Source of the DNA: Arcuatula senhousia | Taxonomy: Eukaryota > Mollusca > Bivalvia > Mytilida > Mytilidae | NCBI GenBank assembly: GCA_963971305.1 | Contig: OZ020303.1 | Location: 34,956,106 to 35,020,105 of the forward strand | DNA length: 64,000 nt | Direction of reading: 5' to 3' | Part shown: positions 9,116-47,509 of the stretch, one piece after another | Layout of the letters: each line of letters starts with the position of its first letter | Numbering within the stretch: position 1 is the first letter of the stretch | Notes under the pieces: model-generated | Databases searched by the model: none | Told to the model about the DNA's origin: nothing | What the model saw: the letters and a program-made list of their open reading frames with translations, nothing else | Made by a program: the position numbers and the translations under genes

Positions 9116-10310
9116 ATGGTATGACAGAAGCAAACAGTCACCAATTGGGCATTTTGAAGCCAAAAGAGCAAAGGCAAAACCAAACAAGCACAAATGAACA
9201 CAAACATCAACTGACAACACGACCTCAAGTCCTAATACAACATGACTTTAAGTCCTAATAAAATTTTTATGAACATATAATTCAATTAAAGTCATGTTAC
9301 ACAAGAAGAACCTTTAATAGAGCTTTTAAATTATATTTATGTATAATTTTACACAAAATATCACAAATATAAATTTGTAAACAAGATTTTTTTTTCTAAA
9401 TTAAAGAAACATTTTAAAGAAAAATGGGTAAATTCCTAAATCTTCAACAAAGTTTCTAAAAATTATTAATTTCATATAATATGTTGTTTTATGGGTATAA
9501 ACATAAAGTACAACCATTTAGCAACAGAATAAGTTAAATAATATTAGCCTTTTCAAAACTTTGTTTGCAAATTCATGGGCTAAAATGGTTGAATGACTTT
9601 TAATATTTTTCAAAAAAACAAACAAACCGGAAATGATTTCATATCGATGCTTAAGAAATAAACAATATTATTCATTTGAAATGTATAAATTTTATATATA
9701 TCCCCAATATACAGCAACATACTGCATCATGAATTGTGAAGGAAATATTTGAATGTAACACCAAAATCAACTGCATTTTCCACTTCAAATGTTTTGAATT
9801 AAGCATACTGACGAAGATTACCAAAAATTCCAACAAACTTCAAATTAATGTACATGATTTTTAGACCTATGAAACTTTCATGGCAAAGTAAATCATATTT
9901 TTTATGCAGTCGTTATGTATCTGACAAAAGGGCATTATAAAAAATAGAGGTGAAAAAAATGTACAGTAATTACTCAAAACATTGTTTATTGTGACTAGGA
10001 AGTGAACAGTATAATTTTAAACTAATTAATTTTTGATTAAGCAAGTGTACTCAAATTAGCTCACTCTATATTTAACTTGCAAATCAAGCTATGTCATAAA
10101 ACAGTCATCTGCATTGCAGTAGATTTCATTCTAGATATCATAAATACAATGAATTGACATTTTACTACTTATTTGATAATATAATAACATTTTGTCATCA
10201 AACTGTTAGTTATTCTTTTAGACCTTGATAAATAAAATGACATGATACTTCTTAAAAGATGACAACATACTTTTGGTTTACAAAACTAAAGTTAAATGTT
10301 TTAATCTGAT
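9116..10310. other. AT-rich intergenic DNA
   Basis: The first 130 bp hold a last diverged spacer module of the minisatellite. The rest has no recognisable gene or repeat. It is the 3' flank of the minus-strand protease/PHD gene. Confidence 0.4.
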
Positions 10311-14946: not shown

Positions 14947-15249
14947 AGATTTATTTAACGTCGGTGAATACACATCAGTGATGTGATGTGTACACACGTC
15001 AAACAATTAACATAAGCTCTGAAGAGCTTTTGACCGACGGCAAGATTAACGACCGTTTGGCTAATAGGAGGCCCTTGCATGGTCGCCAGGCTTGTGTGGG
15101 AGGAAAGCCCGATATTCCAAGCTGGAAAATCGGTGAAACCCACGAGCAACGGTAGGTGCCTGGAAACCTTGACACGTGTGGGGCTCGAACCCACAGAGGT
15201 GTCGACCTGTGATTTAAAGTCCAACGCCTTAACCACTCGGCCACCGCGC
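14947..15249 (-). mobile_element. tRNA-derived SINE inserted in the minisatellite
   Basis: On the minus strand the element starts at 15249 with a class II tRNA-like head (15172-15249). The A box is TGGCCGAGTGGTTAAGG, a long variable arm follows, and the B box is GGTTCGAGCCCC. The body then contains AGCTCTTCAGAGCTTATG and ends with CCGACGTTAAATAAATCT near 14947. It is flanked by an 8-bp target duplication TATGTGTA (14939-14946 and 15250-15257), both copies being part of the 21-bp repeat. The anticodon loop reads CTTTAAA, and the anticodon stem has two mismatches, so it is not a working tRNA gene. Confidence 0.85.
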
Positions 15250-27554: not shown

Positions 27555-30500
27555 TTAATCTTCCTCCTCCTCCCCTTGTCTGTTAGCAGGTTCAAATGGT
27601 AGTGTACCTTGTCCTCTATCTGGGTCAGGCATTTGAAATATGTGTAGATCAGAAATAGAAATTCCAAGCTGGCTGTAACAGAAAAATCAGAATTTCTTCA
27701 ATTATTATCACTCAAATGATGTTTAAGTATGATTTCATATTCTTAATGTGTAAATTTTGGTGTGGTGGTTATTTATCTTTTTGAAACATAACAAAAATAT
27801 CCTCCTTATGAATAGTTTATTTTAAAAATTTATTCATAACATGAAGCATTTGATCAACTCCATGCCACATGCTTACTTCATTATGCATAGAAATATCACT
27901 CAACAAAAATTTCAAAGATAACTCTTCAATTAATACATTTGATATATCATTAAAAATTGTCCTGTTAAGCAAGACAGCTTTATATGTTCAAATGATCTAC
28001 CATCTATTCCCTGACAAACCTAACTACATCCTTTTCAAAATAAGAAGGACTCAATTTGAAGAGGTAATTGACAAGTTACCTGTGGTATTCAAACAAATGC
28101 CTCATACTACTTGGCAACCCAGGCCACAGATACAAACCAGTAATCAAATAGTACATGCAAAGATATTTTTTTACAAAGCCAAATTAATTGAAAAGACTAT
28201 GAAACATCAAATTATTGTGATAGTTTTCTTTGATGACACCTTTACCTCATGTTCTGTGGAGTGAGGAATATAAACTGTTTATGTTTCTGGCTTGCTGCTA
28301 CATGCATCATCATGTCCATACTGATTCTCCTATTGACCATGTCCTGTGAAATTTAACAAATTACAATTTAATAACACAATCAGATGCCAGGTCTTCACCT
28401 AGAAGATGAACCATTATTTTTAAAATTACTCTATAAGTAAAAATCGGAGAAGAAACAAGAAATCTGTAATCCAATGTTCACTAGTGATACATCCACTTTA
28501 ACAACTGCTTTTTGTTGAAATGTAAACAAGTTTGAGGGAACTACAGATGGACAAAGGTAAAACAGTATACCCCTCTTCTCTAAAGCAGGGATATAAATAA
28601 TGAATAGATATTAAAAAGAAATCGTGGTAATAATGGTAAAATTGGCCTTAAAGAATATTAATCTTACTGTGAGAAAAACTTTGTTAAGTTTTAAGACAAA
28701 GCATTTTTGTATAAAAAAGGTTTGTAATATTTTGTAGAATATAAATTGTATGAGGGCACAATTTTATGGTTTTGATTCCTCCAATCCAAAATAAGAAACT
28801 GTCTTTATGTGCTTACTACATGGATGGAGGTGCCATAAAAAATCATAACTTACCATAAAAACATCAAATTCATCAAGACATCTGAAAGGTGACTCCATTG
28901 CATCCCATAATGCTAAGATGAAACAGACTGTAGCAAATGACCTTTCACCTCCAGATAATGACCTCATATCCCTATTAGAAATGGTCCCATCATTTTGGGC
29001 AGCTGCAGTTGGTGGTTGAACCTAAAATTGTTAATATTCAAAAATAAAGTTCAGATTTGTTTACCGGTATATTGTATATATTATTGTACATGTTTATATC
29101 TTAAGCAATATGTATAAGCCTGAATTTAATTTTATTTATGTTTTATTATAAACTAATGGCATTTTCTTAATTCCACATACCGGTAGTAAGGTCTTCAAGC
29201 AGCATTTTAACATACTTTTAAAATGACAAAAACAAGAGAACACGCAAACTACAGTACAATGGTACAGTTTGATGTTGTTGTTGTATTCAGTCAGTTTGCA
29301 TAATTTAGTCAACCTATGCCCTCCTGATAAAAATCCTAAATCTTTTTAATTCTGAAATAACTAATACACCCAACTGGACTAATAAACAGTTATTTCTATT
29401 ATTATGATAAATGTCTCTAGAAGTACACAATGACATAACATTAAAGCTGTGAGGGTTATGCTTGGACTCCAGATGAAAGAAGCAGATTAAAAAGTAAGAA
29501 ATATAAACATATTTGAAGCGTGTGATTATTATTGTCATGCTATACATGACTGAAGAATAGAAGTCCATTATTAGACAGGTCTGAGGCACAGAATTTTTTA
29601 TAGGATGTATACTTGATAACTGGTTAATACTGTACAGCAGGTTACTGTAAACATGGAAATTTTCATGGGGTATTATTTTCGTGTTTTTGTCAAGCAAACC
29701 ATTTGCGTGGGGGATAATTTCACAAATTTCAGACTATTCAATACACGAAGAATAAATCATTCGTGAGGGGTATTTTGGGGAAAATTTTGTGACCATGAAA
29801 TAAGCAAAAATTTTCATGTTTACAGTTCATTCATGGGAAACGGATAACATAAAAAATGTATACAACGTAAAAACATATAAAATATTTTCTGGATGTTTCA
29901 GCCTTTATAGAGCATTCCTCAGCGAATGTTTATATTAAGATTCATGTAAACACGTTCACAAACAGCTCATTTGTTTAAAAATATTGATAGATAATGCAAA
30001 ATTTTACCACTTATAAAAACCCTGTTCTACAGTATTCCTTATATTAATCAAAATATTCTCATGAATCAGGAAGATGACTAATATAATTCATTATCGAATA
30101 TGTCTTCTGTAAACATACTGAAAATAGTCCTCCTTTTAAGAACAAGGTGCAATACTAAGAGTGCAACATTAGACTGTGAACAAACTTTGAATGAGGTTAA
30201 TGGGAAAATGTGAAAAAATAGGCGGAACCAAACACCATTATAAATTGTTACAACAGTAAGTTTAACATAACTAGCCTAATAGGGGTTTTTGAGTAAGTTT
30301 TGAAACAAACATGCATATTTAAATAAGATAATAAAGAAATGACAAAAGTGATAAATTTTGATTTATAGTTTATGGACTAGTTTGACAGGCCGACCCAAAA
30401 GATTTCAAATACACCAAAAAAAAATTGTTACTGCTGGCAGAATCTGTCTAAAGGCAGAATCTGTCTAAAGGCAAAACAGGAAAAAGAAAAACAAAGCGAA

Positions 30501-31186
30501 TTCAACCATAAATAAGGAAAAAGGAACACAACTTCTTTAAACTTCAAAACAATATCCATACAAGATCATGCATGAAAACCTGGTAAGCGGTCTACTCATA
30601 TAACAGCAAGAAGTTAAAATGTTCATCTTTACTCCATATGAAAATTTACAAGGATTTTTTTTTTCATAAACCAGAATTTGGATCTTTTTCGAAGATGTAT
30701 ATTGCATGCATTGTCAAGTATTCAATAAACAGGAAGTAGAGTAGTTATAAGCATGGAATTGATTAACATCATACAGTACTAGAGAACCGAGCTACATGCA
30801 AATAATTGATTTATAAAACTGGCATGCACAGTAAAGTTGTCCAGAAAAATGTGATACATAAGTGTTTGTGTTGTCACAGAATACTTAACAACAGAGAGTG
30901 CCAAAGTGATCCAGATATGTGGCTTCTGCAACATGACAATAATTTGGGAACTTCTTGCTGTTTGCTGAGTAAGTAGATTATGGCTACTTGCTAAATGATG
31001 AGAAGGATAATGGGCACACAGACTTACAGACATATCTAATGTTTCCTTTTGATGACAAAAAATGATCTTTCCATTGTACTCCCTATTACTCAACAGTACA
31101 ATGAAGAAATATTTTGCTCGCATGGCAATAATCCGTCTAAATTCAAAGTATTGCTGTTGTCGTTGTGTCATAACTTTTTCAAGCCG
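27555..31186 (-). CDS. SMC6: SMC6 C-terminal head exons (canonical form)
   Basis: Exon 31028-31186 ([18 protein letters not shown] to HQKETLDMS) leads into exon 28854-29021, which carries the ABC signature SLSGGERS and the Walker [10 protein letters not shown]. Exon 28246-28343 reads [20 protein letters not shown] and FIFLTPQNM, and 27555-27672 ends [17 protein letters not shown] and TAA. The C-lobe pairs with the N-lobe to make the ATPase site. The acidic tail is typical of SMC6. Confidence 0.95.
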
Positions 31187-34100
31187 CTGAAAAATACAAT
31201 TTAAAAACATGCATCAACATACATCTAGAATCAGTTCCTTTGTCTTGTGTGATATCTTCAATTTCCCAATCCATTTATTTACAAAGATGATTTTGATAAA
31301 TTCAAGTTTCGCTCTCCAACAATATGAATTTCTAATCTTCAAATAGCATTTTAGTCTTATTTGTATGCTGTCGTCCAACTTCTGAAAATAAATATTGAAG
31401 AGAAGAATAAAATATCTGTGAATGTTTTTTTTTACTTCTGAGTTATAGAAATATGTTTACATAAGATTCCTGCAAGGTACAGCCTACTCAATTTACTCTG
31501 CAGTTTTCTTCCCAGGACAAAAAGCTTAATTATGATTGATAAAAGAAAACATTTGGCTCTGAAAAAAAAGTTGCTATTTTCAGAAAAAAAATTATCAAAA
31601 TTTCTGTGGACAGAACTACAATTATATTTGAAGTTCTTGTGGTATAACCAGTGTCTTTCATTAATTTGACAATCCCTGGAACTAATTGCAATTCACACAT
31701 AAAAATCATTAAAAGCAACATGGAATTTGATTCTAAAATATTATGTGCATCAAGTAAATAAGAATTTTAACATCAGAATTATATAGAATTATGTGTAGCT
31801 ACAAACTGAAGTTAAAAATGCATTACCTCTATGAACCTTTTACACTGAGACACCTCTTTACGGATTTTCTGATAGGATTCTTTTGTTTCATAGTATCTCT
31901 TTGTGATCTCCTCTGGATTCCCTCGACTACAAAATAAATAGGAGTGCAATAATGAAATATGTTTCAATGATCCACATACTTTTCTAAACACATTGTCTAT
32001 ATCATAATTTTGTCAGTATATTGCCCTTTTTTATTGGAAAATATTGCTCGAAATACAATTCTATTATATACCTATTCAAGTGTTTTTCAAAACCCTTTTA
32101 TATCATAAAGAAAGCAAGATAAATGAGAGTATGTCCAAAAGACATAATTCCCAATCTTGTGATGAACCGACGGACGGAAAAACAGACTCAAAAACTATAT
32201 GCCCCTCTTCTTTCATAGATGGGGCATAAAAAGCGGCAAAGTGTTCAATAAGATTTTGAATTATTCTTTTATTAGTGTTTGTAAATCAGGAACAATTTTG
32301 CTTTGCACACTTACTTCTAGATACTTTTTAAAAAATATATCAGATTAACAAGCGCAAAACAAAATGGTAAATGTACTACTGTGGAATCATTTATTTTCAT
32401 AGGTACCAATTTTCGTGGTTTTGGGAAAAAGGGTCAGTTTGTGGATTCTTAAATTCATGGTTATGAAGTCCACTGCATTCAGATCAATATTAATTTTCCT
32501 TTTTGATGGATATCAAATTTGGTGGGTCAGGCCCAACCACGAAAACTATGAAAATTGATACCCCATGAATAATAATGAAACCACAGTATATTACATGACA
32601 GAACCCTGATAAAGAAAAGTTCTCCTTTGATAATTCACTACTAATACTAAATGAATCTTAAATCTGAACATACTTCTTTTCTTCTGTTTTGATTTGTTTG
32701 TTGATCTGGTTGATTTCACTCTCCAGGTTATGTACTGTTCTTCTGGTACTTATCCTATCAGGACTAACAAGCTTAGCTTTCTCTATATCTGCCTATAAAA
32801 AAAAATCATAAAATTTCACATAAAGGTCAACAAGAATATTTGTTTAAAAGACAAACCTTGCAGCTATTTCAGATCTTTGGAATCATAATTTCAAAAATTT
32901 ATACAGCATTGTTTCAATGACCAGTGCATATTTGTAACAGAGAATATTTTTTTGCTTAATTTACATGAATTTTAATGATGGTTGTTCTCCAGATTTTCAT
33001 TAAGATTTTGGAATTCCCTTATTTTTATTATTTCTAACAGGAGACTTCTAACTATTGACGATAATATCCAACATTTTTTTTTTATAGAAAGATGTCACAT
33101 CGTTTAAGTTAGCAACATTTTTTAACATTGTTTAATCTTACAAACAACTGAACAAGTGGTAAATAAACTGAAATGACAAATCAGAACAAAATTATTTAAA
33201 AACAAATGTTACAATGTTTTGTTTACCTCTATTTCTCCTTTATATGTTTCAGTTTTCTTTTTAAGATCTGCAATCTTTTTCTCTTGTTCCTTTAACTTGG
33301 CCTCATAATGTTTCTTGTGGCTTTTAGCTTGTTCTATCTCGTTCTGTACTCGACCTAATTCATCTTTGAGAGGTTCCCCATCATCAGCTTTCCCTCTCAT
33401 TTCCTGTTCTATTTCTTTGAAGTTTTTTTCTGCCTCAGTGACCTCTGACACATTCTCATCATAGACAGATTGTTTTTCTTTCTTTTGGTCTTCATGTGAA
33501 TGAATGGATTCTTTTAATATTTCGACTTCCTCTTCCTGTTATAGGTTAAATAAAGTTGTTTTCATTAAATAAAACATGTCATTTAAATTCCTGTTCAATC
33601 CTTGTTTGGATTGGTAAATGAAAAGAAGTCATTAGTTAAATAAACAAGAATAATGCCCCATCTCGCAACATTTTGGACAGACAGATGAACCAACTAACAG
33701 AAGAACAAATCAAAACACTATATGCTCTCCTTCTTTTATAGATGGGAAAAAAAAAAGATAAATACAGATGATTTTGGAACAAACAAGGTCAGATGAGAAA
33801 ATTCTCTCTATAAAATATAATTTTGTTTAAAAACTGCTGTAGTTTTATTCAGGTGATTGCACAAAAAGCTTAATTGAAATGATCATAAATGTGTCAAACA
33901 CTGTTTTATCCATTGAGTCAACTTAAGCAAAGCAAGACAATACAGCACATGAACTACAAGTAAGTCAGATACACCAGGAAAGATATTTTCTAAAATGTTA
34001 TAAACTTACTAAAGTTGTAACATCTACTGGTGCTGGATCTTCTATGTTCTTTAAATCATCCACTTCCTATAGTTGAAAACACAAAATTCTGATGTTGGTG

Positions 34101-37100
34101 ACAATCATATCAAAATGCATCACATTCAGTAAGTTAACAATCACATTGCATTGAATAACTAGACAAAATCTGGTAACTTCTTAATAAAGATGTAAATGCA
34201 TATTATTCTTTTTTTCTGAAATAATAAAGTTCCAATAAGAAGTTATGCTAGGATGTAAAGATAGTTAGACATTTTAGATTGATCATACTTTAGTTTGATA
34301 ATTTGATTTCAAGAACAAAGATTTTATTGCTTGGTCTCTAAAAAATATTCTCCTGCAGTGCCTCTTATATTTTGTATACGTGTGAAACCGAACTTACTGA
34401 GTTAAGTTTCCTTATTCTCTGATTAATCTTCATCAGCTGTGTATCAGTCTTTCTGGATTCGCTCTCATTTTTGTTTATTTCTGTACTAAGTCCCCTCTGT
34501 CGCTGCCTGATGCTATTCATTTCTGATTTTATTTCTTCCAGTTCTGCCTCCATTTTGACGATGTCAGCATCTACATTGGCAGTAAGGTATCTAGCTGTAT
34601 CTGTATTGGTGGAGTAGTAACGTAAGGACGGATGGCAATAAACCTGATCTCCTGTCAGAGTGAAGGCCTACAATAAAGTCAAATATATCTTTTATTAGGC
34701 AGCTTTAAAAGAGAGACCTTAAAACATACAACACTAAACACATGAAGATTACTGGTTGTATTCCAATGTTGATTTTCAAATTGGTGCTGATTTATGTAAA
34801 TTGTGAAATGCTCATTTATATATATGTACATTGTTCTTTTATCTGTACATTGTAATAATTGTCATTTCTGCAAACATATTCCTAGATTGGATGCATTTTT
34901 AATGGCTATGCTACTTATTTATTGATATTGGTACTGTATCAAATAGTAATTTCTAGTTTTGTTTCTTTAAACAATTTTACAACACTAAGTTTTCAGTTTT
35001 TAGTGATTTATTTGGCAAACAACACGTCTTAAAACCTTCAAAGTCTTACACACATAAGACTCCAGTACAACAAACATATATCACTTCATAGAAATGTCTA
35101 ATGAAAATGTATAAATTAGGCACAGTGTACCTCTCTACAGTTCCTGGGAGGAGGGTTGATATCAGGGTCCATAACTTTCCTGGCTACTCTTCCCTCTGGT
35201 ATCAGTAATATCATTTCAATGTTTCTCTAAAAATGGTTAAAATTACAAAATTTATTCAGACAAATTGATATATTAAACAAAACAAAATTACATCTTCACA
35301 AAAGAATTACAGAAAATCTGAGTAGAAGACACAAACACATGAAAAATCACTTACTACATGTACATTAACATCTCTTATCTACCTTTATGTATTATTATAG
35401 TATTAATAAATGGGTGTTTTTATAATGGCCCTGTTATATGTTCTCGGTCTGCAATAATGGCCCCCAGGGCCATTATTGCAGACCGAGAACATATAACAGG
35501 GCCATTCTCAAATCACCCATTTCTTAATACTTTTATTAACCAACTATGAAAAAGGAGACTCGAGGCGGACAAGTGAGGCGGAACTCATAATTTCTGCCTT
35601 AACTCACTGACAGTTACTTTGTCTCTGATTCGTAAGAGAAAATTCTAAGATTTATCATTCCTGCTCTTTTCAATTTTTTGTTTTGTTCTTACCATTAAAA
35701 CCTGTTTGCAAAATATCTAATTAATATGCAAAGTATAAAATGTTTAACTGATCTATATAATTTAACTAATAAATTTGCAGGTACAGTAAAAAATTTTTTT
35801 TATGTCAGTTCAACATTTTTTATGGATTACTTTTTAAGTGGACGAAATGCTGTAGATAATGGAATTGGATTTGATTTGTCAATACGTTATCAAATTACAT
35901 CCCATTTAGTATTTCAATATTTTAGGGACGAGTTGCTGAGGACAAAAGAATTTGATTTGAATAGTTTCATTTCTTTCCCCAAACTAAAGTTTCCCCCTTC
36001 AGCAGACAGCAAACTGACTTGTAAACATCTTAAAAATTTGTCAGGGTTAGGATCATTTTCTGCATACATGTATCAATATTTTATTCAAACTATTGACATT
36101 CAGAAGGTTTTTAGAAACCTGACAGAAACAGACAGGATCTAATATAAGTACATTGTATCTAGGTTTATCTTCAGGTAGGAAACCATTTTATACTTTGGTT
36201 ATTTGTAACTAAGGGATTTTTTTTATATCTTATTTGGAAAATAAATCTAATACATGTATTAGCTTGTAGGATTAGCGTAAAAAAGACGTTAAAGAAAATA
36301 TAAGCGACCAAATTATGAAATATGTAATAACCTACAACAGTCATATGTATAAGCAATTATCAATAGATTAATCCTCAGAAATTGAAGTTTAACACAATTT
36401 CTAACATTAATTTGATACTTTTCATTCAATTTGTAATATTGTTTTAATCAATTAATGCTGAAATAAATAACGTCAGCCATTTTGTAACCATCCATAATGG
36501 CCCTGTTTTCTGTCATAATGGCCCTGTTGTAATGCCCTGTTTTCTCATAATGGCCCTGTTTTGCATTTCATTAAGTAAGGGCAGATAGACTAATAATATA
36601 CTTAGTTGGTTAATAATACTGAGTTACTTAAAGCTGCTTATTCATAACCACTTTGAAGGCATGGAAGAATTTGTTATAGACTTGAAATGTTATATGGCAC
36701 ATTTATACCAATACTTGGCACTAGACAATGACATGGAAATGGGACAAGAAATTGTTATCTCCTGCTTGTGAGAGAAATTATAGTGTTCTTCTGCCAATCC
36801 AGTCTTTCTATAGAATGTATATGAGGACCTATTTATTATGCCTAGCTTACCTGATCTATGAGACAGTGAGAACCTATTTATTATGCCTAGCTTACCCGAT
36901 CTATAAGACAGTGAGAACCTAGTTATTATGCCTAGCTTACCTGATCTATGAGACAGTGAGAATGCCTAGCTTACCTGATCTATGAGACAGTGAGAATGCC
37001 TAGCTTACCTGATCTATGAGACAGTGAGAACCTATTTACTATGCTTAGCTTACATTATCTATGAGACAGTGAGAACCTATTTACTATGCTTAGCTTACAT

Positions 37101-40100
37101 GATCTATGAGACAGTGAGAACCTATTTATTATGCCTAGATTACCTGATCTATGAGACAGTTTGGACCTATTTATTATGCCTAGCTTACCTGATCTATGAG
37201 ACAGTGAGAACCTATTTATTATGCTTAGCTTACATGATCTATGAGACAGTGAGAACCTATTTATTATGCCTAGATTAACTGATCTATGAGAAAGTGAGAA
37301 CCTATTTATTATGCTTAGCTTACCTGATCTATGAGACAGTGAGAACCTATTTACTATGCTTAGCTTACCTAATCTATGAGACTGTGAGAACCTATTTATC
37401 ATGCCTAGCTTATCTGATCTATGAGACAGTGAGAACCTATTTATTATGCCTAGCCTACCTGATCTATGAGACAGTTTGCTATCACTGGATCTTCCAAGTC
37501 TAGTACATCTATTACAGCTTGGAATTCATTGCTATGAGCTCTCTACAAAAAACCTCCAAATTAACTTTTTTTATATTTATAGAATCTTATATTCAACAAT
37601 TATTTTAAAGAACAATAGCATCAGTTCTCTTATGCTTTATTGTACTATCTGCTTCCGACTAATGTTAAATGACTAAATAAACTAATAATAGGTAAAATTG
37701 AAAATTTTCTCTGTTTTTTTTTTTTAGTTTTAAGCAAATTTCACCATGATAAATGTGGTACTATACATTCAAGAGCCAAAGTCTTAAAAAAATTATATCA
37801 TCTTTTTTTAATGATGGGTTTCATTTAAAAAAATGTTCATTGAAGGGTTACAGAAAATTCAAATTAATAACATATTAGATAACTCTATTCAATATAAATA
37901 AAGTGAGTATTCTGACACTGTGTCTTTATGAAGGTCACATAATAAAACAGGTTTTCAAAAACTTACATGTCTGGAGGTATCATATACATTGTTCTGAAAA
38001 ACATAAACAAGGTACATTAAGACAACAACTTTCACTTGTCATACTTCTTTTCAATATTTTAAAGAATTATGTTTACAAAATAAACCTTTTCACTAATGTC
38101 TGTTATTGGTTTTTATGTTTTAATTAATTTTATTTTTATTTTTGAGAAGCCTTGAGGGCTTCCTCTTTATAAAATATAGTCTTGATACTGTTTTTTAATA
38201 GAGAACGAAATATGTATCATACTTATTAAAATCTACAAAATCAGTAAACATTAATACCTTAAATCTACTGGTGATAATAGATGGTCTTGATCTATCACAG
38301 TGTCTGTCAAAAATACTTTCTAAAACCTTTTCATCATGGTAGTCATGGCAACAAAATGAGTTGATCAGATTACCAAGGCAGCGCTCCACAGCCAGAGCCC
38401 ACTGTTGGTCCTTTAGATGAAAACAAGCACCTGAAAACAAATGCATATTCTAAATTTAATTTAGATAACACAGCAAAACTGGTTGGTGACAACACAATCT
38501 ATGTGTGTATGTGTTGGGTGTTTAAGGCCCTTTTTCGATGCACCTGAACCATGTAAGACGATCAGTTTTATTTGTGGAGGAAACCGGAGTAAACATACAA
38601 AGTCACCAATCTTGGGCAGATAACTGACAAACCTTATCACATAGTAGGGAAGTCCCGTTTTTGTAAATTATAAGCTAGACTCAAACACCACCTGAGAGAT
38701 GATCATTGAGTGATGAATAGTGAGGTATTTAAACAAGCGCCTTAGACCACTCGACCACCCAGCCCCCCCCCCCAACACAATCTAAGGGAAATTGCAAGAT
38801 GACTTGCAGCACCCACTGGTTTCATTGAAGACTGTTGGCTGTTTTTCATTTGTGGATTTTTAAGTTACCACTGATTTATGTAGGCTGTGTGGCTTACCCT
38901 TATTTCACAACAAAAGATCTTTCCAATGGTACAAAAATGAGTAGGAAATACAAGTTTTTATTTCAAAATTTAGTCTGGTGAGCAAAATATAGGTATAAAC
39001 AAGATTGCTTAAATACAACATTATCAGAACAATATGCAGATGTTACATCCTTGTCTGTTGATCATAGAATATTAAAAACTCTGGTCCAGTCAAACATACC
39101 AATAGGTCCTCGAGGTTTCTGATGAAAACCACCTCTTCTTGCTGTCTCCTCAATAGCCTTAATCACAGCTGGTACATAAGGTCCAAATCTTCTGAACCTG
39201 TCATTCTTAGCTGCCTTGAAACTTTGAAGTGTTTTGGAGACTTTGTCCTCTCTTGATTTTAAAGCTTGGAATTCTTGACTATAGAGAGAAAAATTTAAGA
39301 ATCGTAAAAATATTAGATGTTTTTATACATCTGGTAATAGGCATACATTTCTTTTATATAAGCAAGTTCATCTTGTAAAACTATTTCCAAATGATTTTTT
39401 AAATCTTCATATTAATAAATTTTCATATCCTTCTTTTAATAAGGTTTATTTTAATATCTACATTGACATCAAGGAATGAACAAATATTTGAATCTTTTGC
39501 ATACACTGACTATGTTGCATTTATGTCTTAAGTAATGTAATAATCAATCAAAACTCTTGGCTTCATTGAATACTGTGAATTCATTTTTTTTTTGGTAGGT
39601 ACACATTTTTGTGATTTGATGAAAGAGGATCAGTTCACGGATTCTTAAATTTGAGGTTCTAAAGTCTTCCGCATACATACATGTATCAATAATAAATTTC
39701 CTTTTTGTGAGGCTTAACTTTTCGTTGGTCAAGGACATCCACGTAAACCACAAAAATTGATACTCAATGAATAATAATGGAACCCTAGTAGATAAAACTT
39801 GAACACCCTTATCATGTATTTTCTTACTTCATTTTATATTCATCTCCTTTGTATTTAGTGACAGCACTTCTAAACTGTTCATTCTGATGTTCTGTAGTAT
39901 GTTGTTGAGCCTTGAGACTGTTAAGTTGTTCTACCAGCTTCTGTATTTTGTCCTCTCTAGCTCGTCTTTCAGACTCATAATCATGCTGGGCACTGAAAAA
40001 AATACAGTATGATACTGAATACTTTCTTTCATTCATGAAAGAGAATCTATATTGCATGCATAGGTTGGTATTTTATCATACAATTTCTGAACATAATCAA

Positions 40101-43100
40101 GAACTTTACAGTTCTTCAAATCAAGAAAAAATATAAATTGTTTTTCCTTTCTCTGAAATTCAGTGTTTTCCCTAGGTCCTTAAAGCATCATGGCAATTTG
40201 ATGCTATCTAAAATCCTATATAGTATATGCTAAAGGAAATGAAACCAATAGATGTTATTTTGAAAATTGAAAATACAAGGATGTTGTTACAAATTTCTGG
40301 AAAGAAAACTGAAATTTACTAAAAAAATTATGATAAATATTTATAAAAACTCATAACAACTGAATGTGTTAATTGTACCGTAATTACTATAATTTGCTAC
40401 GTAGCATTGGAACCCCACATTAAAAACATTAAAATAGGTTAACATCACATTACATGTAAAAGTTTTATGAAACCAATGGCCAATTGGCTTTTTTCACTGT
40501 TTTAAAATGTTGTATCATGTTTATAGATTCACTATCAAATTGTTTTATATTCTACCAATCTTACCTTTTTTGTAGCTCATGAATTCTGGCCTCCAATTCA
40601 GACTTTTCCCGTAGCTGTTTCCTTAAATTATTGTCAACTCTCTTCAAATCATCCTATAAAACAAAATGTGTTAAACTGCTGATCTAACCCTACATGGTGC
40701 CCCAAATTATTAGTTCATGTAATTACATCTTTGAATTAAAAAAAAAAATCCAAGAGTTTCTGTGTAATGAATTGATCCAATAAGCTATTACTGTTGACCT
40801 AAAATAGCTTTTGTTTTATTGATTAAAATCATCAATGAATATTTCTTTTAAAGAGACTTTTCAGATTTTCAAAACTTATTAACAAAGTATTCTTTTTAAT
40901 GTAAAAAACAACAACAAAACAATGAAAAATCCAAGCCATTTTATCAATAAGACTTGAAGTTATTACCAAAGCATTTCTAGCGTTTTTCTTTTTCTGGTTG
41001 AGTATTTCCCTGAATTCATCATATTTAGGCCTGAGTTTAGAGACAAGTTCACTGGCTGCCTTCAGTTGTTCCTGGATGGCTTTCTGTTGCTTTACACATT
41101 TTTCTACATTTTCCTAAAATGAAAAAGATTATTTACATTATCAATTAAACCTTTACAAATAATATATATCCATGTTTAAAGTTTCTATAACTAATATAAG
41201 AATTTTTATATCAAAGCAAAGCCATAACATTATCTAGCCACATGAAGTTGTAAAAACATTACCATTTTTATCTTACCAACCTCTTTCTTTATATAAATTT
41301 TGATTATACACCTGTAATCAAATTTAGGAAGACTTCTTCCCTTTCGCAGAGAGAGAGATTTAGCACCATAAAGTGGGTTAAACCTGTCATTTCTTTTGAA
41401 ATGCCTACACCAAATCAGAAATACTGCAACTTATACATGCCAAGTATACAGGTACATCACCATTTTTTTTTAACCTTTTGCGATTGATTTTTTTCTATCA
41501 GGTAATCTATTCATTGCCTTCATATGCTTAATTCATCCCAAATTTTAGGGTGCTAATGTCATTTTTACAAAATCAACAGATTTTAATTCATTCCTGTAAA
41601 TTCTCATATATTTCAATTCCGTCATGTACATGACCATGAACACCATATTTTCTTAAGTTTCCTCGCGACTGCTTTGAAACAATTAGGTAACAACTTAACA
41701 TGTACATGTATTAAGTTATTTCATACTGTAGAATTTGATATCTTACAAGCGGACAATAAAATCTAACCTTAGCTTCAACCACTTTCTGTTCAAATCTTGG
41801 CATTCTGGCTTTTTCTTGTTCATATTCCTTTGATATGGGCTGAAGTCCCTATAAAATAACAAAACAAAAAATCTATTGTATCTACATTTAAGCAGATCTT
41901 TAATATTGAACTTCCTATTACAGGACAAATGACCCATTATCCTTTCTTTTCTTTAACAATTCATTTTTTTTACCTTTTCTTTCTCTGCTACAAATGCCCA
42001 TGCCATTTCTTCTTTCAGTGTGCCAATCTTTTTCTTCAAATCATCAATGGCCGTCAGGGATTTAAACTTTTGTTCCCATTCTAACACTTCTTTTTCTAGT
42101 TTAGGCATCATCTGGAAGTCCAAGATAAATAATAATATCTTATCTAAACAAGAGGCTCCCAGGAGCCTGAATCGCTCACCTGGTCTTGATGTTGACCCTA
42201 TACTTTTGTAGAGCTAAATGAGCTGAACATTTAAGCAAGCAACAGCTTTTCTCTACCTGCAATAGTTTTCATTCTATAGGCCAAAAACACCATTTTTCAC
42301 CTATAAGGGGCCATAACCCCTATAAGGAGTCATCTGACAACTTCGACCCTATGAAGACTTTTGTAGAGCTAAATGAGCTGAACATTTAAGCAACCAACAG
42401 CTAATCTCTATCTGCAATAGTTTTCATTCTGTAGGCCAAAAACATGAAAAATGGCTATTTTTCAGTGGCCGTAACCCCTATAAGGGATCATCTGACAACT
42501 TCAACCCTATGGAGAATTTAGTAAAGCTAAATGAGCTGAACATTTAAGCAAGCAACAGCTAATCTCTATCTGCAATAGTTTTCATTCTGTAGGCCAAAAA
42601 CATGAAAAATCGCTATTTTTCAGGGGCCGTAACCCCTATAAGGGGTCATCTGCCAACTTCGACCCTATGGAGAATTTTGTAGAGCTCAATGAGCTGAACA
42701 TTTAAGCAAGCAACAGCTAATCTCTATGTGCAATAGTTTTCATTCTGTAGGCCAAAAACATGAAAAAATGCCATTTTTCAGGGGCTGTAACCCCTATAAG
42801 GGGTTATCTGACAACTTCGATCCTATGGAGACTTTCGTAGAGCTAAATGAGCTAAACATTTAAGCAAGCAACAGCTAATCTCTATCTGCAATAGTTTTCA
42901 AATGTAGGCCAAAAACATGAAAAATGGCTATTTTTCAACTTTAAGGGGCCGTAACCCCTATAAGGGGTCATCTTACAACTTCGACCCTATGGAGACTTTT
43001 GTAGAGTTAAATGAGCTGAACATTTAAGCAAGCAACAGCTAATCTCTATCTGCAATAGTTTTCATTCTGTAGGCCAAAAACATGAAAAAATGCTATTTTT

Positions 43101-46100
43101 CACCTTTAAGGGGCCGTAACCCCTATAAGGGGTCATCTGACAACTTTGACCAAATGGAGACTTTTGTAGAGCTTTTGATGCTGAATCAGTAGCGTGGCCT
43201 CAGATTTCCTCTATCTCTTATACTTTTTGATTTATAAGCCAAAAACAGTAGTCTGACCCCCCTAGTCTATTTTTAGCAACGGCGGCCATGTTTTTTATCA
43301 AAGCATTTCAAAATGAGGATCGTTTGTTGCCAACATGTCATATATCATTCCTGCCAAGTTTCTGTTAAATTGGTTCAGTGGTTTCAGAGGAGAAGATTTT
43401 TGAAATTGTTAACGGACGACAGACGACGACGGACGACGACGGACGCATAGTGATGGCATAAGCTCACATGGCCTTTGGCCAGGTGAGCTAAAAAATCTGT
43501 CCAAGTCAAAAATAGCCGTATTTCATTAAATAGGAAGTGGGTGAGCAACAGACCTGAAATCAAATCCCAGTTTATTGGACGCCACCACAATGCTGTATAC
43601 CAAATATCAAGTGGCTGTGAAAACTGTTACACAAATTTCTTCCCCACCCGCCATTCACCATTTTATAACCCAGATTTTTCACTCTGTGAAATCTGGCAAA
43701 AAATTGAGATTTGGTGACATGGACATCAAATTATCTACTTTTAGCTTATCTAAAGAAACATGGAATGATTGTTTTTCACTGAAACCAAGACTTGAGAGTC
43801 TTGTTGGAGGCTCAGGTGTATAAGGTTAGGAAGTAATTGATCTATTTGTTATATGAGATATCAATGCTGTTTTTTTAACTAAATCAATAAATGGTGCTTC
43901 ATTCAATCATGCATGTACTAGTTAACATTGGCAATGACTTTTTCTTTTTAAAAAATGTCCACATTGCTTTAACATAAGATCTAAAACATGGGATGTTTTG
44001 CATAAATTGCTATGATATTAAATTTAAGTACACATGTAGTGCTTTATTATTTTATATTTTTGAATCAGGGTCAATTCTTATATTCATATATATTTGTCTT
44101 AAAGAAAGTATGACTAGAAAAGCACCTGTTCCTTTTTCTCTATAACATCTTTGGTTACAGCTTTATGTTGATCAGCAGTCTGATAGTCAGCTTTCATTTG
44201 TTCCAACTGTGTGGCCTTGAGAAAAAACTACAACATAAAAGAGAAACTCTCACTGGTTAGAAGTTAATATAAAATAAGCAAGATGTAAAAAAATCATTAA
44301 ATAGAAAAAAGCTTTACCTCATTAAATGAACTTTTGGCATTACATTCTTATATCATATATTCAAATAATTATATAGTCTTTTTGAATATGTATTATAAGA
44401 CAAAACACTTTACCTATATCAAATACCCTATATACACTATATCGCACCCCATCACAAAAACCACAAAGGTAATTACAAAATGTTACAATGTAAACATGTG
44501 ATATAATGAATATGAAATGGCTAAATATGTACCACATGCTGTATAAACCGTGGACTGATATCACCCCCCGGGTGATATATGTAGATGTCTCAGGTTTTTA
44601 CAGCATGTGGTACATATTAGGACATGTAATATTCAGTTTATACCATTCTCTACTGATTACTTACAACCATGTATAAGGCATATACTGTATAACCTATCAT
44701 CTTATCCATTTTTGTTGTCTAAATAACCAACACAAAAAGATATAATCAAAAGTTTTAGTTTATTTGAAAACATTTTCTTACCTTGTATTTATCATGAGGA
44801 CTTTTTGAGTTTAAGAAATTACGACTTGTGTCTTGGTTGAGAACAGCTACAGGATTATCTACTTGTATGTTAAACTGATCTAAGATACAATTCAGGTCTT
44901 CTCTCTTTGTTGATACTGTTTTCCCTGTTGAAATAGTTTTAATAATTAAAGCATGCTTTTTTTTTATTTTAAAAAAAACGATTACCTTTGTTTTGTAAAT
45001 CATAACATGTAAAGCCATTATAACACTTAGTAGACAATAACTTTAATTTCAGCTCGTACTTTTTACATTCTAGAAAGAAAGAAATTGTGATTTAAAAGTA
45101 TTTTTGGCATTGATATGAGGTATACTGTTATACATTGTATACATTGATATACTGTAGAATTATTTTCATCAATTTTCATATATGTAAATCAGACAAGACA
45201 ATTTTTGGGTTTTGTGTTGTATTTATTTTCATGAAAACAACCCAATATTTGGAAAAATAAGCCAAACTTTTGAATGTGAATCTAACCTTACATTGACTTT
45301 ACGTCTCATACGATCACTAAAAAAATTAATTCTTTCTTCGTTATCAGCCACTAGTAGAAAAGTTCAAAATTGAGTTAAAAGATATGATAGTTAATTGTTT
45401 TAATTAGAGTTTGACTGGTGTGCTGTACTGAGATGATCACCTCAATATACCTATTGTGTCTCACAACTATGTTGTGTTCTATGGTCATTACCGGATCCTA
45501 AGATCGCAATGGAAGAGGGAGGTTTGGCGCCATAAAACCTGGTTTAACCCACCATTTCGTTTGAAATGCCTGTACCAAGTCAGGACCATTGCGATCCACC
45601 AGTTCTCCGGTATGACTGATTCGTTTTTGTCATTTTCTCTGGACTATGAGATTGATCGTTCAAGTTCGGTAGTTTTGTTATTACCTTTATTTAAAAAAAA
45701 CCCAGAATATTGACGAAGCAAAGTAAACCACTTTACCATCTTTAGATTTCATTTTATAGCTGCTGCCACCTTCTTTAGTAAACTTCCTCTCCACAATTAT
45801 AGTACTGCCGTAGTCATGAGGCTTGTATGCATCAGCTCCTCTGTTTCTCAAGTGGATTTCCAATTCTGCTGACCTTAAATAAACAAATGAAGTATAAATG
45901 ATTTACACTTTAATAGCTGCTGCCTCCATCCTTAGTTAACTTCCTTAACATTTTTAATTTACACTGCTGCACAACAGCATGTATAAGGCGGATTCAAATT
46001 ATAATGCGTTGAACCTCAACCAATCAAGTAAAATTGCTGGGGAAGTTATTTTCCTGGTCTCAAACAAAAATTTTTAATAACAATTTTCAACAATTGTGAT

Positions 46101-47177
46101 TCTAATAGTTTAAAACACAAACAAACAAAGAGTAAACTATTATTTTTATTATAACTTACTGTTTCCCAGTTTTGATAAAACTTTTGATGGTTGTACCTCG
46201 ACTGGTTATAGAAGCTTTCCCACCTAAACCAACTACTAAGGCTGTTACTATTGCACTCTTCCCACCTAAAACAGCCAATTGTTAATGACATATTGGTTTT
46301 AATTTTCTGAGAAAAATTGAAGCAATTTGATAAACTAGGTTTTGGACATTTATTTCTTATAATACCCAATTTTCACAACACATTTCTTTTTTTTCCACTA
46401 CATGTATTTTTTTTAAGCTTAGTACAATTCGATCATGCCCTGTTATATATAACATTGGGGTGTAAAGTACACTTTTCTGACAAACGATACTTACTGTAAT
46501 ATTCTACTTTCATAACGGTAGGTATCATGTCTTTTGAATATATTTCTGTTTTTATTTTAATAGTGCTTTATATACCTAACATAATATTAAACATTGTCAT
46601 GATGATATATTATAAATACTTACTCCCATTTCTACCAACAATAAAGTTAACATGAGGTCCCAATCTGACATCTAACCGGCTGTGGCACATGAAATTTTTC
46701 ATTGAAACTCTCTCAATAATCCCTATATCAGCTTCTTTCTAAAAAAACAAGTTAACAGATGTAAATCTGTAAGCTGTAACTCACTAGTAATTTTCCAATT
46801 AAGTGAAATATATGTGCACATCACCTTGTGACAGGTCACCAATGTTCATGATTTACATGTACCTGATTAGACTACAAATTCAAACTTAACAGTCCATCAA
46901 AATTAATTTCTCCATGGCTTAAAATAAAATTTGAAATATATAAAATGAAGAATCCATGAACCAATTGACCTTTTTCACAAATTGGTTCCTTAGAAAATAA
47001 GCATTTTAATTCAGAATGAAATTGATGTTATATTCCACTTACTGTCTGAACATCAAAATCAGCTTGTTGGGTCAGATTCATGTCATCATCACTGTCCTCC
47101 TCTATGACCTCTCTGGATTTCTTCCTGCTGGGTCCTGGTTCCTCATCATTGTTCTTCCTTTTACCCTTCCCCTTCAT
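27555..47177 (-). CDS. SMC6: SMC6, structural maintenance of chromosomes protein 6, complete
   Basis: ATPase of the SMC5/6 complex, acting in nuclear DNA repair and recombination. Twenty-five coding exons join in phase over 3315 bp (1104 residues; human SMC6 is about 1090). In order from the ATG at 47177: 47043-47177, 46624-46738, 46160-46265, 45737-45873, 44782-44924, 44126-44227, 41974-42111, 41768-41848, 40967-41113, 40565-40653, 39828-39992, 39100-39278, 38258-38430, 37967-37993, 37459-37542, 35131-35226, 34398-34667, 34010-34066, 33227-33535, 32674-32792, 31827-31926, 31028-31186, 28854-29021, 28246-28343, 27555-27672. An alternative exon at 31223-31381 is described separately. Walker A GRNGSGKS is at residues 80-87, signature LSGGERS at about 999-1005 and Walker B CLDEFD at about 1025-1030. 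The N-terminus is basic/acidic ([16 protein letters not shown]). Confidence 0.97.
29644..29826. mobile_element. Palindromic MITE in an SMC6 intron
   Basis: ACTGTAAACATGGAAATTTT at the left is inverted at the right (AAAATTTTCATGTTTACAGT). Diverged inner arms (TTTTCGTG, CACGAA) continue towards the centre. Confidence 0.6.
31223..31381 (-). CDS. SMC6: Second, paralogous 53-codon SMC6 exon (candidate mutually exclusive exon)
   Basis: On the minus strand this segment has a good 3' splice site (TTTATTTTCAG), 159 bp of open frame starting [17 protein letters not shown] and ending KTKELILD, and a donor GTATGT. It lies 36 bp upstream of the canonical exon 31028-31186. Both are 159 bp and phase 0 at both ends, and their translations align from end to end without gaps with 13 of 53 residues identical. 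Matches include R9, Y13, R17, the block RAK at 23-25, FI at 28-29, GK at 39-40, H45 and L50. No stop interrupts it. The 36-nt spacer is too short for normal splicing of one exon to the other, which would enforce a choice. Expression is not shown by the sequence; an inactive relic is the alternative. Confidence 0.75.
31827..34667 (-). CDS. SMC6: SMC6 second coiled-coil exons
   Basis: Exons 34398-34667 (starts [20 protein letters not shown], the conserved end of the hinge, then coil), 34010-34066 ([19 protein letters not shown]), 33227-33535 (103 codons, includes [20 protein letters not shown]), 32674-32792 and 31827-31926 (ends CKRFIE). All are Glu/Lys/Gln-rich ascending coil. The last exon ends in phase 0, so either downstream 53-codon exon can be joined without a shift. 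Confidence 0.93.
32128..32232 (-). repeat. Short derivative of the GCCCC/GGACGGAC repeat
   Basis: ATGTCCAAAAGACATAATTC, ACCGACGGACGG, ACTATATGCCCCTCTTCTTT and GATGGGGCATAAAAA are in the same order as the 4285-4388 copy. It sits in an SMC6 intron. Confidence 0.65.
32377..32588 (+). mobile_element. MITE family T1 copy 1 (TACTGTGGAATCATTTATTT)
   Basis: Ends are inverted: TACTGTGGAATCATTTATTT at the left, AATAATGAAACCACAGTA at the right, and inside CCAATTTTCGTGGTT versus AACCACGAAAA. Two other copies are at 39571-39790 and 59948-60438. This one lies in an SMC6 intron. Confidence 0.75.
33650..33752 (-). repeat. Short derivative of the GCCCC/GGACGGAC repeat
   Basis: AATGCCCCATCTCGCAACAT, TTTGGACAGACAGATGAAC and ACTATATGCTCTCCTTCTTT then TATAGATGGG match the 4285-4388 copy with more substitutions. 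Confidence 0.55.
35131..39278 (-). CDS. SMC6: SMC6 hinge-domain exons
   Basis: Exons 39100-39278 ([25 protein letters not shown]), 38258-38430 ([29 protein letters not shown]), the 27-bp micro-exon 37967-37993, 37459-37542 ([20 protein letters not shown]) and 35131-35226 ([19 protein letters not shown]). This globular hinge is where SMC6 pairs with SMC5. The donor of exon 37459-37542 (CAG|GTAGGC) lies at the edge of a 45-bp tandem array of donor-like copies. Confidence 0.93.
35401..36625. mobile_element. Element with GGGCCATTAT-rich ends carrying a 138-codon open frame
   Basis: The left end includes a perfect hairpin (35424-35506). The right end has ATAATGGCCCTGTTTTC-type copies at about 36496, 36516 and 36546, opposite in sense to the inner hairpin arm. 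Outermost GTATTAATAA is echoed by TTAATAATAC near 36617. The interior holds an open frame 35726-36142 on plus ([19 protein letters not shown] to TETDRI) that I cannot place in a family. The whole sits in the intron between SMC6 exons 35131-35226 and 37459-37542. Confidence 0.5.
35424..35506. repeat. Perfect 40-bp inverted repeat with 3-nt loop
   Basis: Arms 35424-35463 and 35467-35506 are exact reverse complements. Each contains GGCCCTGTTATATGTTCTCG and TCTGCAATAATGGCCC. The loop is CCA. Transcribed in either direction it would make a long hairpin. Confidence 0.95.
36826..37474 (-). repeat. 45-bp minisatellite containing repeated SMC6 5' splice sites
   Basis: About 15 units of 45 bp lie on plus (GATCTATGAGACAGTGAGAA, CCTATTTATTATGCCTAGC, TTACCT), two of them shortened to 34 bp. 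The right-most unit is the 3' end of SMC6 exon 37459-37542 and its donor. On the minus strand each unit reads ACTGTCTCATAGATCAG followed by GTAAGC, that is, exon end plus intron start. At least six copies keep CAG|GTAAGC. Units differ by point changes, so the array is not new. Confidence 0.92.
37967..37993 (-). CDS. SMC6: SMC6 27-bp micro-exon
   Basis: Nine codons, NNVYDTSRH, lie between TTTTTCAG and GTAAGT on the minus strand. Both neighbouring introns are phase 0. The residues fill a gap between SRFK and RAHSNEFQ that would otherwise be missing relative to vertebrate SMC6, where a similar YDVRHRA-like stretch occurs (from memory). Confidence 0.85.
38498..38764 (-). mobile_element. tRNA-derived SINE, family S2
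   Basis: On the minus strand it starts GGCTGGGTGGTCGAGTGGTC and TAAGGCGCTTG (A box), then GACTTCCCTACTATGTGAT, CTCCGGTTTCCTCCAC, ATGGTTCAGGTGCATC, and ends in ACACCCAACACATACACACA. The same family occurs at 58523-58776 (plus), where the tail was broken by a MITE. It is intronic in SMC6. Confidence 0.8.
39571..39790 (+). mobile_element. MITE family T1 copy 2
   Basis: Starts TACTGTGAATTCATTTTTTT and ends AATAATAATGGAACCCTAGT. Internal GGATTCTTAAATTTGAGGTT and AAATTTCCTTTTTGTG match copy 1. It is more diverged than copy 1. Confidence 0.7.
39828..44227 (-). CDS. SMC6: SMC6 first coiled-coil exons
   Basis: Six exons (44126-44227, 41974-42111, 41768-41848, 40967-41113, 40565-40653, 39828-39992). 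The first opens [15 protein letters not shown], the end of the N-lobe that is strongly conserved in SMC6. Exon 41974-42111 carries [13 protein letters not shown]. The rest is a Glu/Lys-rich heptad coil that forms the descending arm towards the hinge. The 1.9 kb intron before 42111 holds a pearl-like element (42150-43490). Confidence 0.93.
42150..43490 (-). mobile_element. Pearl-like element with about 7 tandem core units, SMC6 intron
   Basis: From the left: GAGCCTGAATCGCTCACCTG, then about seven units of 150-170 bp (each with CCCCTATAAGGGGTCATCTG, GTAGAGCTAAATGAGCTGAA, CAACAGCTAATCTCTATCTG, GGCCAAAAACATGAAAAA). A unique stretch follows, then a (ACGACGG)n-type microsatellite at 43411-43446, and last a hairpin AGCTCACATGGCC/GGCCAGGTGAGCT (43460-43488). 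The right hairpin arm repeats the left terminus inverted. Confidence 0.8.
44523..44619. repeat. Hairpin of about 47-bp arms in an SMC6 intron
   Basis: AATATGTACCACATGCTGTA at the left is inverted as TACAGCATGTGGTACATATT at the right. The arms meet at GATATCACCC/GGGTGATAT with almost no loop. A few mismatches lie mid-arm. Confidence 0.8.
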
Positions 47178-47193
47178 TGATCTCTGGCTGCTC
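44782..47193 (-). CDS. SMC6: SMC6 N-terminal head exons
   Basis: Coding exon 1 (47043-47193, with 16 nt of 5' UTR) starts [10 protein letters not shown]; the ATG is the only in-frame start upstream of the head. Exon 2 reads [19 protein letters not shown] and ends GRNG. Exon 3 continues [19 protein letters not shown], so the Walker A loop is split by an intron between the glycine and serine codons (phase 1). Exon 4 reads [11 protein letters not shown]. Exon 5 contains [20 protein letters not shown], the SMC6-specific segment around the Q-loop. The intron between exons 4 and 5 holds the R1 repeat at 45497-45692. Confidence 0.95.
45497..45692 (-). repeat. Dispersed repeat family R1, inverted copy in an SMC6 intron
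   Basis: On plus it reads TAAGATCGCAATGGAAGAGG, GAGGTTTGGCGCCATAAAAC, TGCCTGTACCAAGTCAGGAC and so on to TAGTTTTGTTATTACC, the reverse complement of 24530-24727. Confidence 0.75.
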
Positions 47194-47509
47194 CTACAAT
47201 AAAGTAAATTAAAGTACCGGTACATAAAAAAAAAAAACATAATTAAAAAATAAACACAAAAAAAGGGCATTTAATGGGACATTAAATGATACACTGCCAC
47301 AATATTTATCAATAGTTGAAAATATGTGTTTACTATACATCTACATGTACATAGACAGAAAAGAAATGAGTTATCTTTCTTAGACCAGAAATTTTCATCA
47401 TTTTCAAATTTGAAAAATTTACAAAGTGGCAAATCTTCAATTATGTTTTTCGAATCATCCTAGTTCTAATATAAAACCCTGTTATGCTCGCTTATTTCGC
47501 GAGGGTTTT

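What the first reader, a model, noticed from the sequence alone, without database searches (positions are those of the whole stretch)
31028..31381. Twin 53-codon exons in SMC6: candidate mutually exclusive splicing just before the ABC signature
Seen directly: minus-strand segments 31223-31381 and 31028-31186 are each exactly 159 bp, open, phase 0 at both ends and flanked by AG/GT. Their translations align from end to end with no gap (13 of 53 identical, including RAK at 23-25, GK at 39-40 and H45). The upstream exon ends CKRFIE and the downstream exon begins VQPP, and both joins keep frame. Inference: the 36-nt spacer is below normal intron size, which would force a choice and give two SMC6 isoforms differing at the coil-to-head junction that feeds the ATPase C-lobe. 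The canonical copy is closer to vertebrate SMC6 as I remember it; the upstream copy has kept the framework residues while changing most others, as expected under selection for a different role. I know of no described SMC6 exon pair like this.
Basis: partly seen in the sequence, partly recalled or inferred. Interest (0 to 1): 0.88.

Follow-up and report, generated by a model that had tools for sequence, protein, structure and literature searches.

The report
Twin swappable exons in mussel SMC6
A mussel gene for the chromosome-handling protein SMC6 carries two alternative versions of one exon that can replace each other at the joint where its DNA entry gate sits; related bivalves carry the same kind of second version, and in two oysters it is already annotated in place of the usual one.

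Summary
Exons A (31223-31381, -) and B (31028-31186, -) are each 159 nt, stop-free, phase 0 at both ends, 36 nt apart and 13/53 identical, far above chance, in a single-copy SMC6 gene.

Annotated SMC6 of Crassostrea virginica and C. gigas (isoforms X1) has an A-type exon instead of B; M. californianus X4 and Pinctada imbricata have A then B. An A profile made without the window scores window A 49.7 bits, the B profile 26.0. The A class thus probably predates the split of three pteriomorph orders (tree support weak).

The spacer is too short for an A-B intron, so the exons should exclude each other. The swapped piece is the SMC6 neck helix plus most of the next hairpin, where Nse4 forms the DNA entry gate of SMC5/6. 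A keeps mapped Nse4 anchors and the predicted fold; in mussels it has diverged fast (A 18/53, B 43/53). Six text searches found no paper on it. No RNA evidence was available, and two relatives are annotated with both exons.

The parts
31223..31381 (-). Exon A, alternative (variant) 53-codon exon of SMC6
   Evidence: open, phase 0/0, AG/GT; A profile of other bivalves scores it 49.7 bits; single place in own genome, the other two matches being E 2.3 and 3.1
31028..31186 (-). Exon B, canonical 53-codon exon of SMC6 (end of neck helix plus most of the first hairpin of the C-lobe)
   Evidence: matches human SMC6 chain 9lwi_A residues 920-970, E 1.2e-6; only match in own genome at E <= 0.001
31187..31222 (-). 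36-nt spacer between A and B, too short for an A-B intron
   Evidence: shortest of the 21 SMC6 introns measured is 125 nt
31214..31214 (-). Only yUnAy branch-point-like A (TTGAT) in the spacer: position 9 of 36 from A's donor, 27 nt before the end of B's acceptor
   Evidence: pattern match only, branch point not mapped
31827..31926 (-). Upstream constitutive exon, ends CKRFIE
   Evidence: spliced alignment
28854..29021 (-). Downstream constitutive exon, begins VQPP, carries the ABC signature LSGGERSF and the LDEFDVF (Walker B) stretch
   Evidence: spliced alignment; motif names recalled
27558..46266 (-). SMC6 gene model from the Walker A exon to the C terminus (23 exons in the model, B used; the last exon's join is approximate). 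N-terminal exons were seen only as open frames at 46613-46738 and 47031-47270

Best explanation
The SMC6 gene of this mussel (closest, among named proteins, to Mytilus) has a tandemly duplicated exon whose copies A and B are spliced mutually exclusively, giving two SMC6 proteins that differ in 40 of 53 residues. The duplication most likely predates the split of Mytilida, Ostreida and Pterioida. In this species exclusivity is set by geometry: in the 36-nt spacer every adenine lies at most 35 nt from A's 5' splice site, so A cannot be joined to B and the machinery must choose one. The swapped block is the last ~34 residues of the C-terminal neck helix and most of the first beta-hairpin of the C-lobe. 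The helix is where the kleisin Nse4 docks to form the neck gate, the DNA entry gate of SMC5/6. A keeps the hydrophobic and arginine anchors for Nse4 and the predicted fold, so the A isoform most likely builds an ordinary SMC5/6 ring whose gate stability and/or head coupling differ, for example in particular cells such as the germ line. Shown: the pair, gene identity, A-type exons in four other bivalves, A-only proteins annotated in two oysters, kept anchors. Inferred: exclusivity in vivo in this species, the gate effect, any tissue specificity.
For: (1) Pair well above chance, with clean splice sites and frame. (2) P0036 (C. virginica X1) and P0039 (C. gigas X1, XP_011418269.1) carry an A exon in place of B; P0005 (M. 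californianus X4) and P0016 (P. imbricata) carry A then B. (3) An A profile built from these four without the window finds window A at 49.7 bits, E 3e-14 among 2014 window frames; the B profile gives it 26.0 bits. With each row left out of its own profile, A beats B for window (51.3 v 27.5), Pinctada (51.9 v 26.7), C. virginica (37.1 v 28.0) and C. gigas (39.6 v 29.5). (4) Alignment column 45 (residue 43 of the 53) is F in 39/39 B exons and I or V in 5/5 A exons. (5) Constraint in oysters: C. gigas and C. virginica are 50/55 identical in A and 985/1104 over the whole protein. (6) Residues matching S. pombe L968, L972 and R975 are L, I/L and R in 5/5 A exons; L972 and R975 are needed specifically for Nse4 binding (PMC7297730 section 5). 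(7) AlphaFold models of an A isoform (C. virginica) and a B isoform (Saccostrea) give the same elements there: helix to 962, strands 966-973/978-985 versus 965-972/977-984. (8) The Smc6-Nse4 neck gate is the DNA entry gate of yeast Smc5/6 (passages of PMC10191858). (9) OGDH mutually exclusive exons are enforced by branch points under a ~50-nt steric threshold (passages of PMC7969005).
Against: No RNA evidence for the window's species. M. californianus X4 and Pinctada FSP39_022054 are annotated with both A and B in one protein, so exclusivity is not universal in annotation, and all these entries are annotations, not cDNA seen here. Mcal_A scores about equally with the two profiles (36.4 A, 38.4 B). 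The small A profile is not very specific: ten B controls score 26.5-42.9 with it, so only window A and Pinctada A stand above all controls; for the oyster A exons it is their low B-profile score that sets them apart. The single-origin group of A has weak support (57/77, 54% of bootstrap trees), the tool warned of few columns and long branches meeting, and a mytilid-only duplication is disfavoured but not rejected (lnL -17, p-AU 0.07). Codon usage of A is not significantly coding-like. Fast divergence of A in mussels (18/53 against 43/53 for B) could also mean weak constraint. Model confidence is lower for A (block means 70-83) than for B (79-87), and the alignments used were mostly B-type. The S. 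pombe positions were matched by their spacing pattern; the S. pombe sequence itself was not in hand.
Confidence: 0.73

Rival explanations
1. Exon A is a relic in mussels: an old alternative exon still used in oysters but no longer, or hardly, spliced in the window's lineage, drifting without constraint.
For: A differs strongly between the window and M. californianus (18/53) while B is 43/53 and the whole protein 790/1003; codon usage of A is not coding-like.
Against: No stop, indel or splice-site loss in the window despite that divergence; only 433 of 11,305 intronic 159-nt windows of the gene are stop-free in frame; window and M. californianus A both keep length 53, R9, F28, I29, H45 and the Nse4 anchors; M. 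californianus annotation includes A.
Confidence: 0.14
2. A and B are both included in one mRNA, giving an SMC6 with a duplicated neck segment.
For: P0005 (M. californianus X4) and P0016 (P. imbricata) are annotated this way, and both copies keep frame together.
Against: The 36-nt spacer of the window leaves no room for an intron; P0036 and P0039 are A-only and 194 of 199 listed proteins show one B-type copy; a doubled neck and hairpin should break the C-lobe fold (inference).
Confidence: 0.05
3. Not exclusive of the best explanation, a rival only to its history: the duplication arose separately in mussels and in oysters or pearl oysters, and the resemblance of A exons is convergent.
For: Weak tree support (57/77), Mcal_A ambiguous, oyster A exons no higher on the A profile than some B controls; the crinoid Anneissia japonica has its own tandem pair in the reverse order (P0053), so this exon can duplicate more than once.
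Against: Left-out profile scores for window and Pinctada A; shared column-45 change; A upstream of B in both two-copy bivalve proteins and in the window; holding mytilid A and B together costs 17 log-likelihood units, p 0.07.
Confidence: 0.22
4. Chance open frame with chance splice motifs.
For: Only 13/53 identities; codon bias test negative for A.
Against: Shuffle and window-wide scans and A-profile E 3e-14.
Confidence: 0.005

Closest known systems
OGDH exons 4a/4b and similar mutually exclusive exon pairs made by tandem exon duplication (alpha-tropomyosin is another, seen here only in a reference list)
   Same: Two homologous neighbouring exons; exclusion enforced by a branch point too near the upstream 5' splice site (passages of PMC7969005)
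   Different: Different gene; here the whole spacer is 36 nt, whereas OGDH intron 4a is 118-131 nt in birds and mammals; copies only 25% identical; branch point not mapped here
coq-2 mutually exclusive exons 6a/6e in helminths, annelids and molluscs
   Same: Exon pair found in molluscs among others that swaps a core piece of a conserved protein; the switch changes function (passages of PMC7434440)
   Different: Metabolic enzyme; function of the SMC6 switch unknown
SMC6 isoform X1 of Crassostrea gigas and C. virginica (public annotation)
   Same: Same gene, same slot, A-type exon in place of B
   Different: A is 55 codons there, 53 in the window; 15 and 17 identities to window A
The two Nse4 kleisin genes of placental mammals (NSMCE4A and NSMCE4B/EID3; names recalled)
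   Same: Two versions of one side of the SMC6-Nse4 interface in one animal (figure legend of PMC7297730)
   Different: There the kleisin side is duplicated as genes, here the SMC6 side by splicing

Membership tests
Mutually exclusive exon pair from tandem exon duplication | Neighbouring internal exons with sequence similarity, similar length, same reading frame, no in-frame stop | tested here: met
   criteria as in passages of PMC5740500
Mutually exclusive exon pair from tandem exon duplication | Mechanism that prevents joint inclusion | tested here: met
   36-nt spacer, every A in it at most 35 nt from A's donor, below the ~50-nt threshold quoted in PMC7969005; geometry only, no splicing assay
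Mutually exclusive exon pair from tandem exon duplication | Transcripts with exactly one of the two exons, each seen | tested here: inconclusive
   A-only annotated in C. gigas and C. virginica, one B-type copy in 194 of 199 listed proteins, but A+B annotated in M. californianus and P. imbricata; no reads for this species
SMC6 (SMC5/6 complex) | SMC6-type N and C lobes with Walker A, signature and Walker B, closest relatives SMC6 | tested here: met
   human SMC6 chain 9lwi_A E 1e-92 with both lobes matched; three named Mytilus SMC6 proteins at 786/1003, 790/1003 and 711/980 identities
Orthologous A-exon class of pteriomorph bivalves | Window A closer to A exons of other species than to B exons | tested here: met
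   51.3 v 27.5 bits with itself left out, above all ten B controls on the A profile (max 42.9); tree group weak, 57/77
Functional Nse4-binding neck | Residues for Nse4 contact kept | tested here: met
   L968, L972-type and R975 equivalents in 5/5 A exons; positions matched by spacing, binding itself not tested

The most novel reading that the evidence does not exclude
Pteriomorph bivalves run two kinds of SMC5/6 whose DNA entry gate (SMC6 neck with Nse4) is exchanged by splicing. The A form may be specialised, for example for the germ line or for silencing of foreign or extrachromosomal DNA. In mussels its exon evolves several times faster than the rest of the protein, as expected in a conflict, while the ring-closing anchors stay fixed.
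Probability: 0.3. Interest if true: 0.85.

Novelty: new member of a known kind. Interest (0 to 1): 0.65.

Why it matters
As far as six text searches of an open-licence library show, no spliced variant of the SMC6 neck gate is in print. If the A isoform is made, nature has built two versions of the SMC5/6 gate in one animal and, if the A class has one origin, kept both across three bivalve orders. That gives a natural swap for asking what the neck and coil-to-head joint control: gate opening, ATPase coupling or DNA loading. Oysters are tractable, and smc6 is reported as specifically expressed in the primordial germ cell cluster of the Pacific oyster gastrula (one passage of PMC12551290), so isoform use can be checked in existing data.

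Tried and rejected
Exon A alone against PDB sequences gave no SMC hit (six BARD1 chains, best E 0.38). Exon A in its isoform against the protein collection gave 8 candidates, none at E <= 10; this reflects the word-based search, because A exons exist in that collection. The last protein search, with the C. virginica A region, listed 120 of 625 hits; C. gigas was the only further one with an A exon by the scan. Codon-usage test of A was negative. Extra basic charge of A as a sign of DNA binding was rejected: five A exons +6 to +9, 39 B exons mean +5.7, range 0 to +9, and the Smc5/6 neck does not contact DNA in the yeast clamp (passage of PMC9191643). Lineus longissimus X2 and the second Anneissia copy were not counted as A: both score higher with the B profile. 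The exon set has 46 rows: 44 from 41 of the 120 proteins, plus the window's two; eight rows were cropped by hand to 53 residues. The tree left out three near-copies (Mtros, Pimb1, Bhyb), keeping 43 rows. The whole-chain structural match of the A model to yeast Smc6 has low TM-scores (0.24) and was used only as a sanity check. Paper searches: SMC6 + mutually exclusive exons gave 3 papers, judged unrelated from the listing; SMC6 + exon duplication 0; SMC6 + oyster 1 (one passage read); SMC6 + mutually exclusive splicing 0; SMC6 + alternative splicing + mussel 0; mutually exclusive exons + mollusc gave 23 papers, 20 seen as a listing, three of them opened for passages, and none of the 20 is among the 3. 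Searches were searches for background on the neck and on exclusion. PMC5740500 has no mention of SMC6 in its main text (its supplements were not looked at).

Full report
What is there. On the minus strand the two segments 31223-31381 (A) and 31028-31186 (B) are as described: 159 nt each, no stop, phase 0 at both ends, AG before and GT after, 36 nt apart. Thirteen of 53 residues are identical and 26 score positive. The ungapped BLOSUM62 score of 49 is not reached by any of 100,000 shuffles (mean -44.6, sd 15.7), and A is the best match to B among 127,684 53-codon segments of the window apart from B itself. B matches human SMC6 residues 920-970 in the PDB. Each exon has one place in the 1.04-Gb genome: B was the only hit at E <= 0.001, and the two other matches to A are at chance level, E 2.3 and 3.1. 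Splice-site scores of A (acceptor 8.8, donor 6.1) lie within those of the other introns of the gene. Codon usage of A is not coding-like by itself.

Relatives. The protein collection returned 2527 relatives for the canonical region, of which the best 120 were listed and loaded. A profile scan of the 199 proteins of both listings (many are vertebrates or repeated isoforms) finds five that carry an A exon or two copies of the slot: P0036 C. virginica X1 and P0039 C. gigas X1, with A only; P0005 M. californianus X4 and P0016 Pinctada imbricata, with A then B; and P0053 from the crinoid Anneissia japonica, with the canonical copy first and a variant second. The other 194 show one B-type copy by this test, among them a divergent one in the nemertean Lineus. 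Because the collection shows one representative per 90% cluster, isoforms that differ only in this exon are mostly hidden, so these counts say nothing about frequency.

One class of exon. A profile of the four other A exons scores window A at 49.7 bits (E 3e-14 among 2014 open frames) and window B at 28.6, while the B profile scores window A at 26.0. With each row left out of its own profile, window, Pinctada and both Crassostrea A exons prefer the A profile, and M. californianus A is undecided (36.4 against 38.4). The A profile is small and not very specific: ten B controls score 26.5 to 42.9 with it, so only window A (51.3) and Pinctada A (51.9) exceed every control, and the oyster A exons stand out by their low B-profile scores (28.0 and 29.5, controls 60.5 to 97.8). 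All five A exons have I or V where 39 of 39 B exons have F (column 45). The tree groups the A exons, but weakly (57/77, with a warning of long branches meeting). Forcing mytilid A and B exons together costs 17 log-likelihood units (p-AU 0.07), and forcing the two mytilid A exons together is not rejected (p 0.28). The best reading is one duplication before Mytilida, Ostreida and Pterioida split (lineages), with the crinoid pair as a separate event.

Rate. Between the window and M. californianus, B is 43/53, the whole protein 790/1003 and A only 18/53. Between C. gigas and C. virginica, A is 50/55 and the whole protein 985/1104. So A is as conserved as the rest of the protein in these oysters and much freer, or differently selected, in mussels.

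How exclusion works. The spacer is 36 nt, and the shortest of the 21 SMC6 introns measured is 125 nt. The only yUnAy site in the spacer has its A at position 9 from the donor of A and 27 nt before the end of the acceptor of B. A 5' splice site to branch point distance under about 50 nt is a proposed steric limit; this is how OGDH exons 4a/4b are kept apart (passages of PMC7969005). B can still be joined to the upstream exon with A skipped, and A to the downstream exon with B skipped. This is inference from geometry. The two-copy annotations in M. californianus and Pinctada warn that the rule need not hold where the spacer differs; those spacers could not be read here.

What the swap changes. 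In AlphaFold models of a B isoform (Saccostrea, exon at 929-981) and an A isoform (C. virginica, exon at 928-982) the exon spans the end of the neck helix and most of the following hairpin; the elements are the same, the confidence is lower for A (ten-residue block means 70-83 against 79-87). The alignments used were mostly B-type, so this shows compatibility, not proof. [quoted passage not shown] L965, L972 and R975 are needed specifically for that contact, L964, L968 and E969 for SMC6 interactions in general (section 5 of PMC7297730). Matched by their spacing to FIxxLExxMxxR, 964-965 fall in the constitutive upstream exon and 968-975 in the swapped exon. A keeps L, I/L and R at 968, 972 and 975 in five of five sequences and varies at 969 (D, H, N, L, L). 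The Smc6-Nse4 interface of yeast is the neck gate through which DNA enters the ring, opened by Nse5/6 and closed upon DNA clamping (passages of PMC10191858), and the neck of Smc5/6 does not touch DNA in the yeast clamp (passage of PMC9191643). The likely effect of A is thus on gate stability or coupling to the head, not on DNA contact.

Verdict. It is a new member of a known kind (mutually exclusive exons), at a functionally loaded and, by six text searches, undescribed position.

Noticed in passing
P0053 (Anneissia japonica SMC6) residues 882-934 and 935-987: A crinoid SMC6 carries two tandem copies of the same segment, canonical first, variant second: apparently an independent duplication of the same exon.
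   Followed up: partly
P0037 (Lineus longissimus SMC6 isoform X2), C-terminal neck: A nemertean isoform has an unusually divergent sequence in this slot (39.6 bits A profile, 46.0 bits B profile); it may be a further alternative exon.
   Followed up: partly
window 16716-18251 (-): Open frame of 512 codons with a reverse transcriptase domain (RVT_1, E 6e-25).
   Followed up: no
window 7187-9125 and 13146-14950: Long arrays of 21-nt units; the 604-codon frame at 7255-9069 (+) lies within the first set of arrays and has no Pfam match at E <= 0.001, so it is probably spurious.
   Followed up: no
window 36996-37475: 45-nt tandem array that reaches 17 nt into the SMC6 exon modelled at 37459-37542; the model is uncertain at that edge.
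   Followed up: no
window 42202-43173: About six copies of a 158-nt tandem unit inside an SMC6 intron.
   Followed up: no
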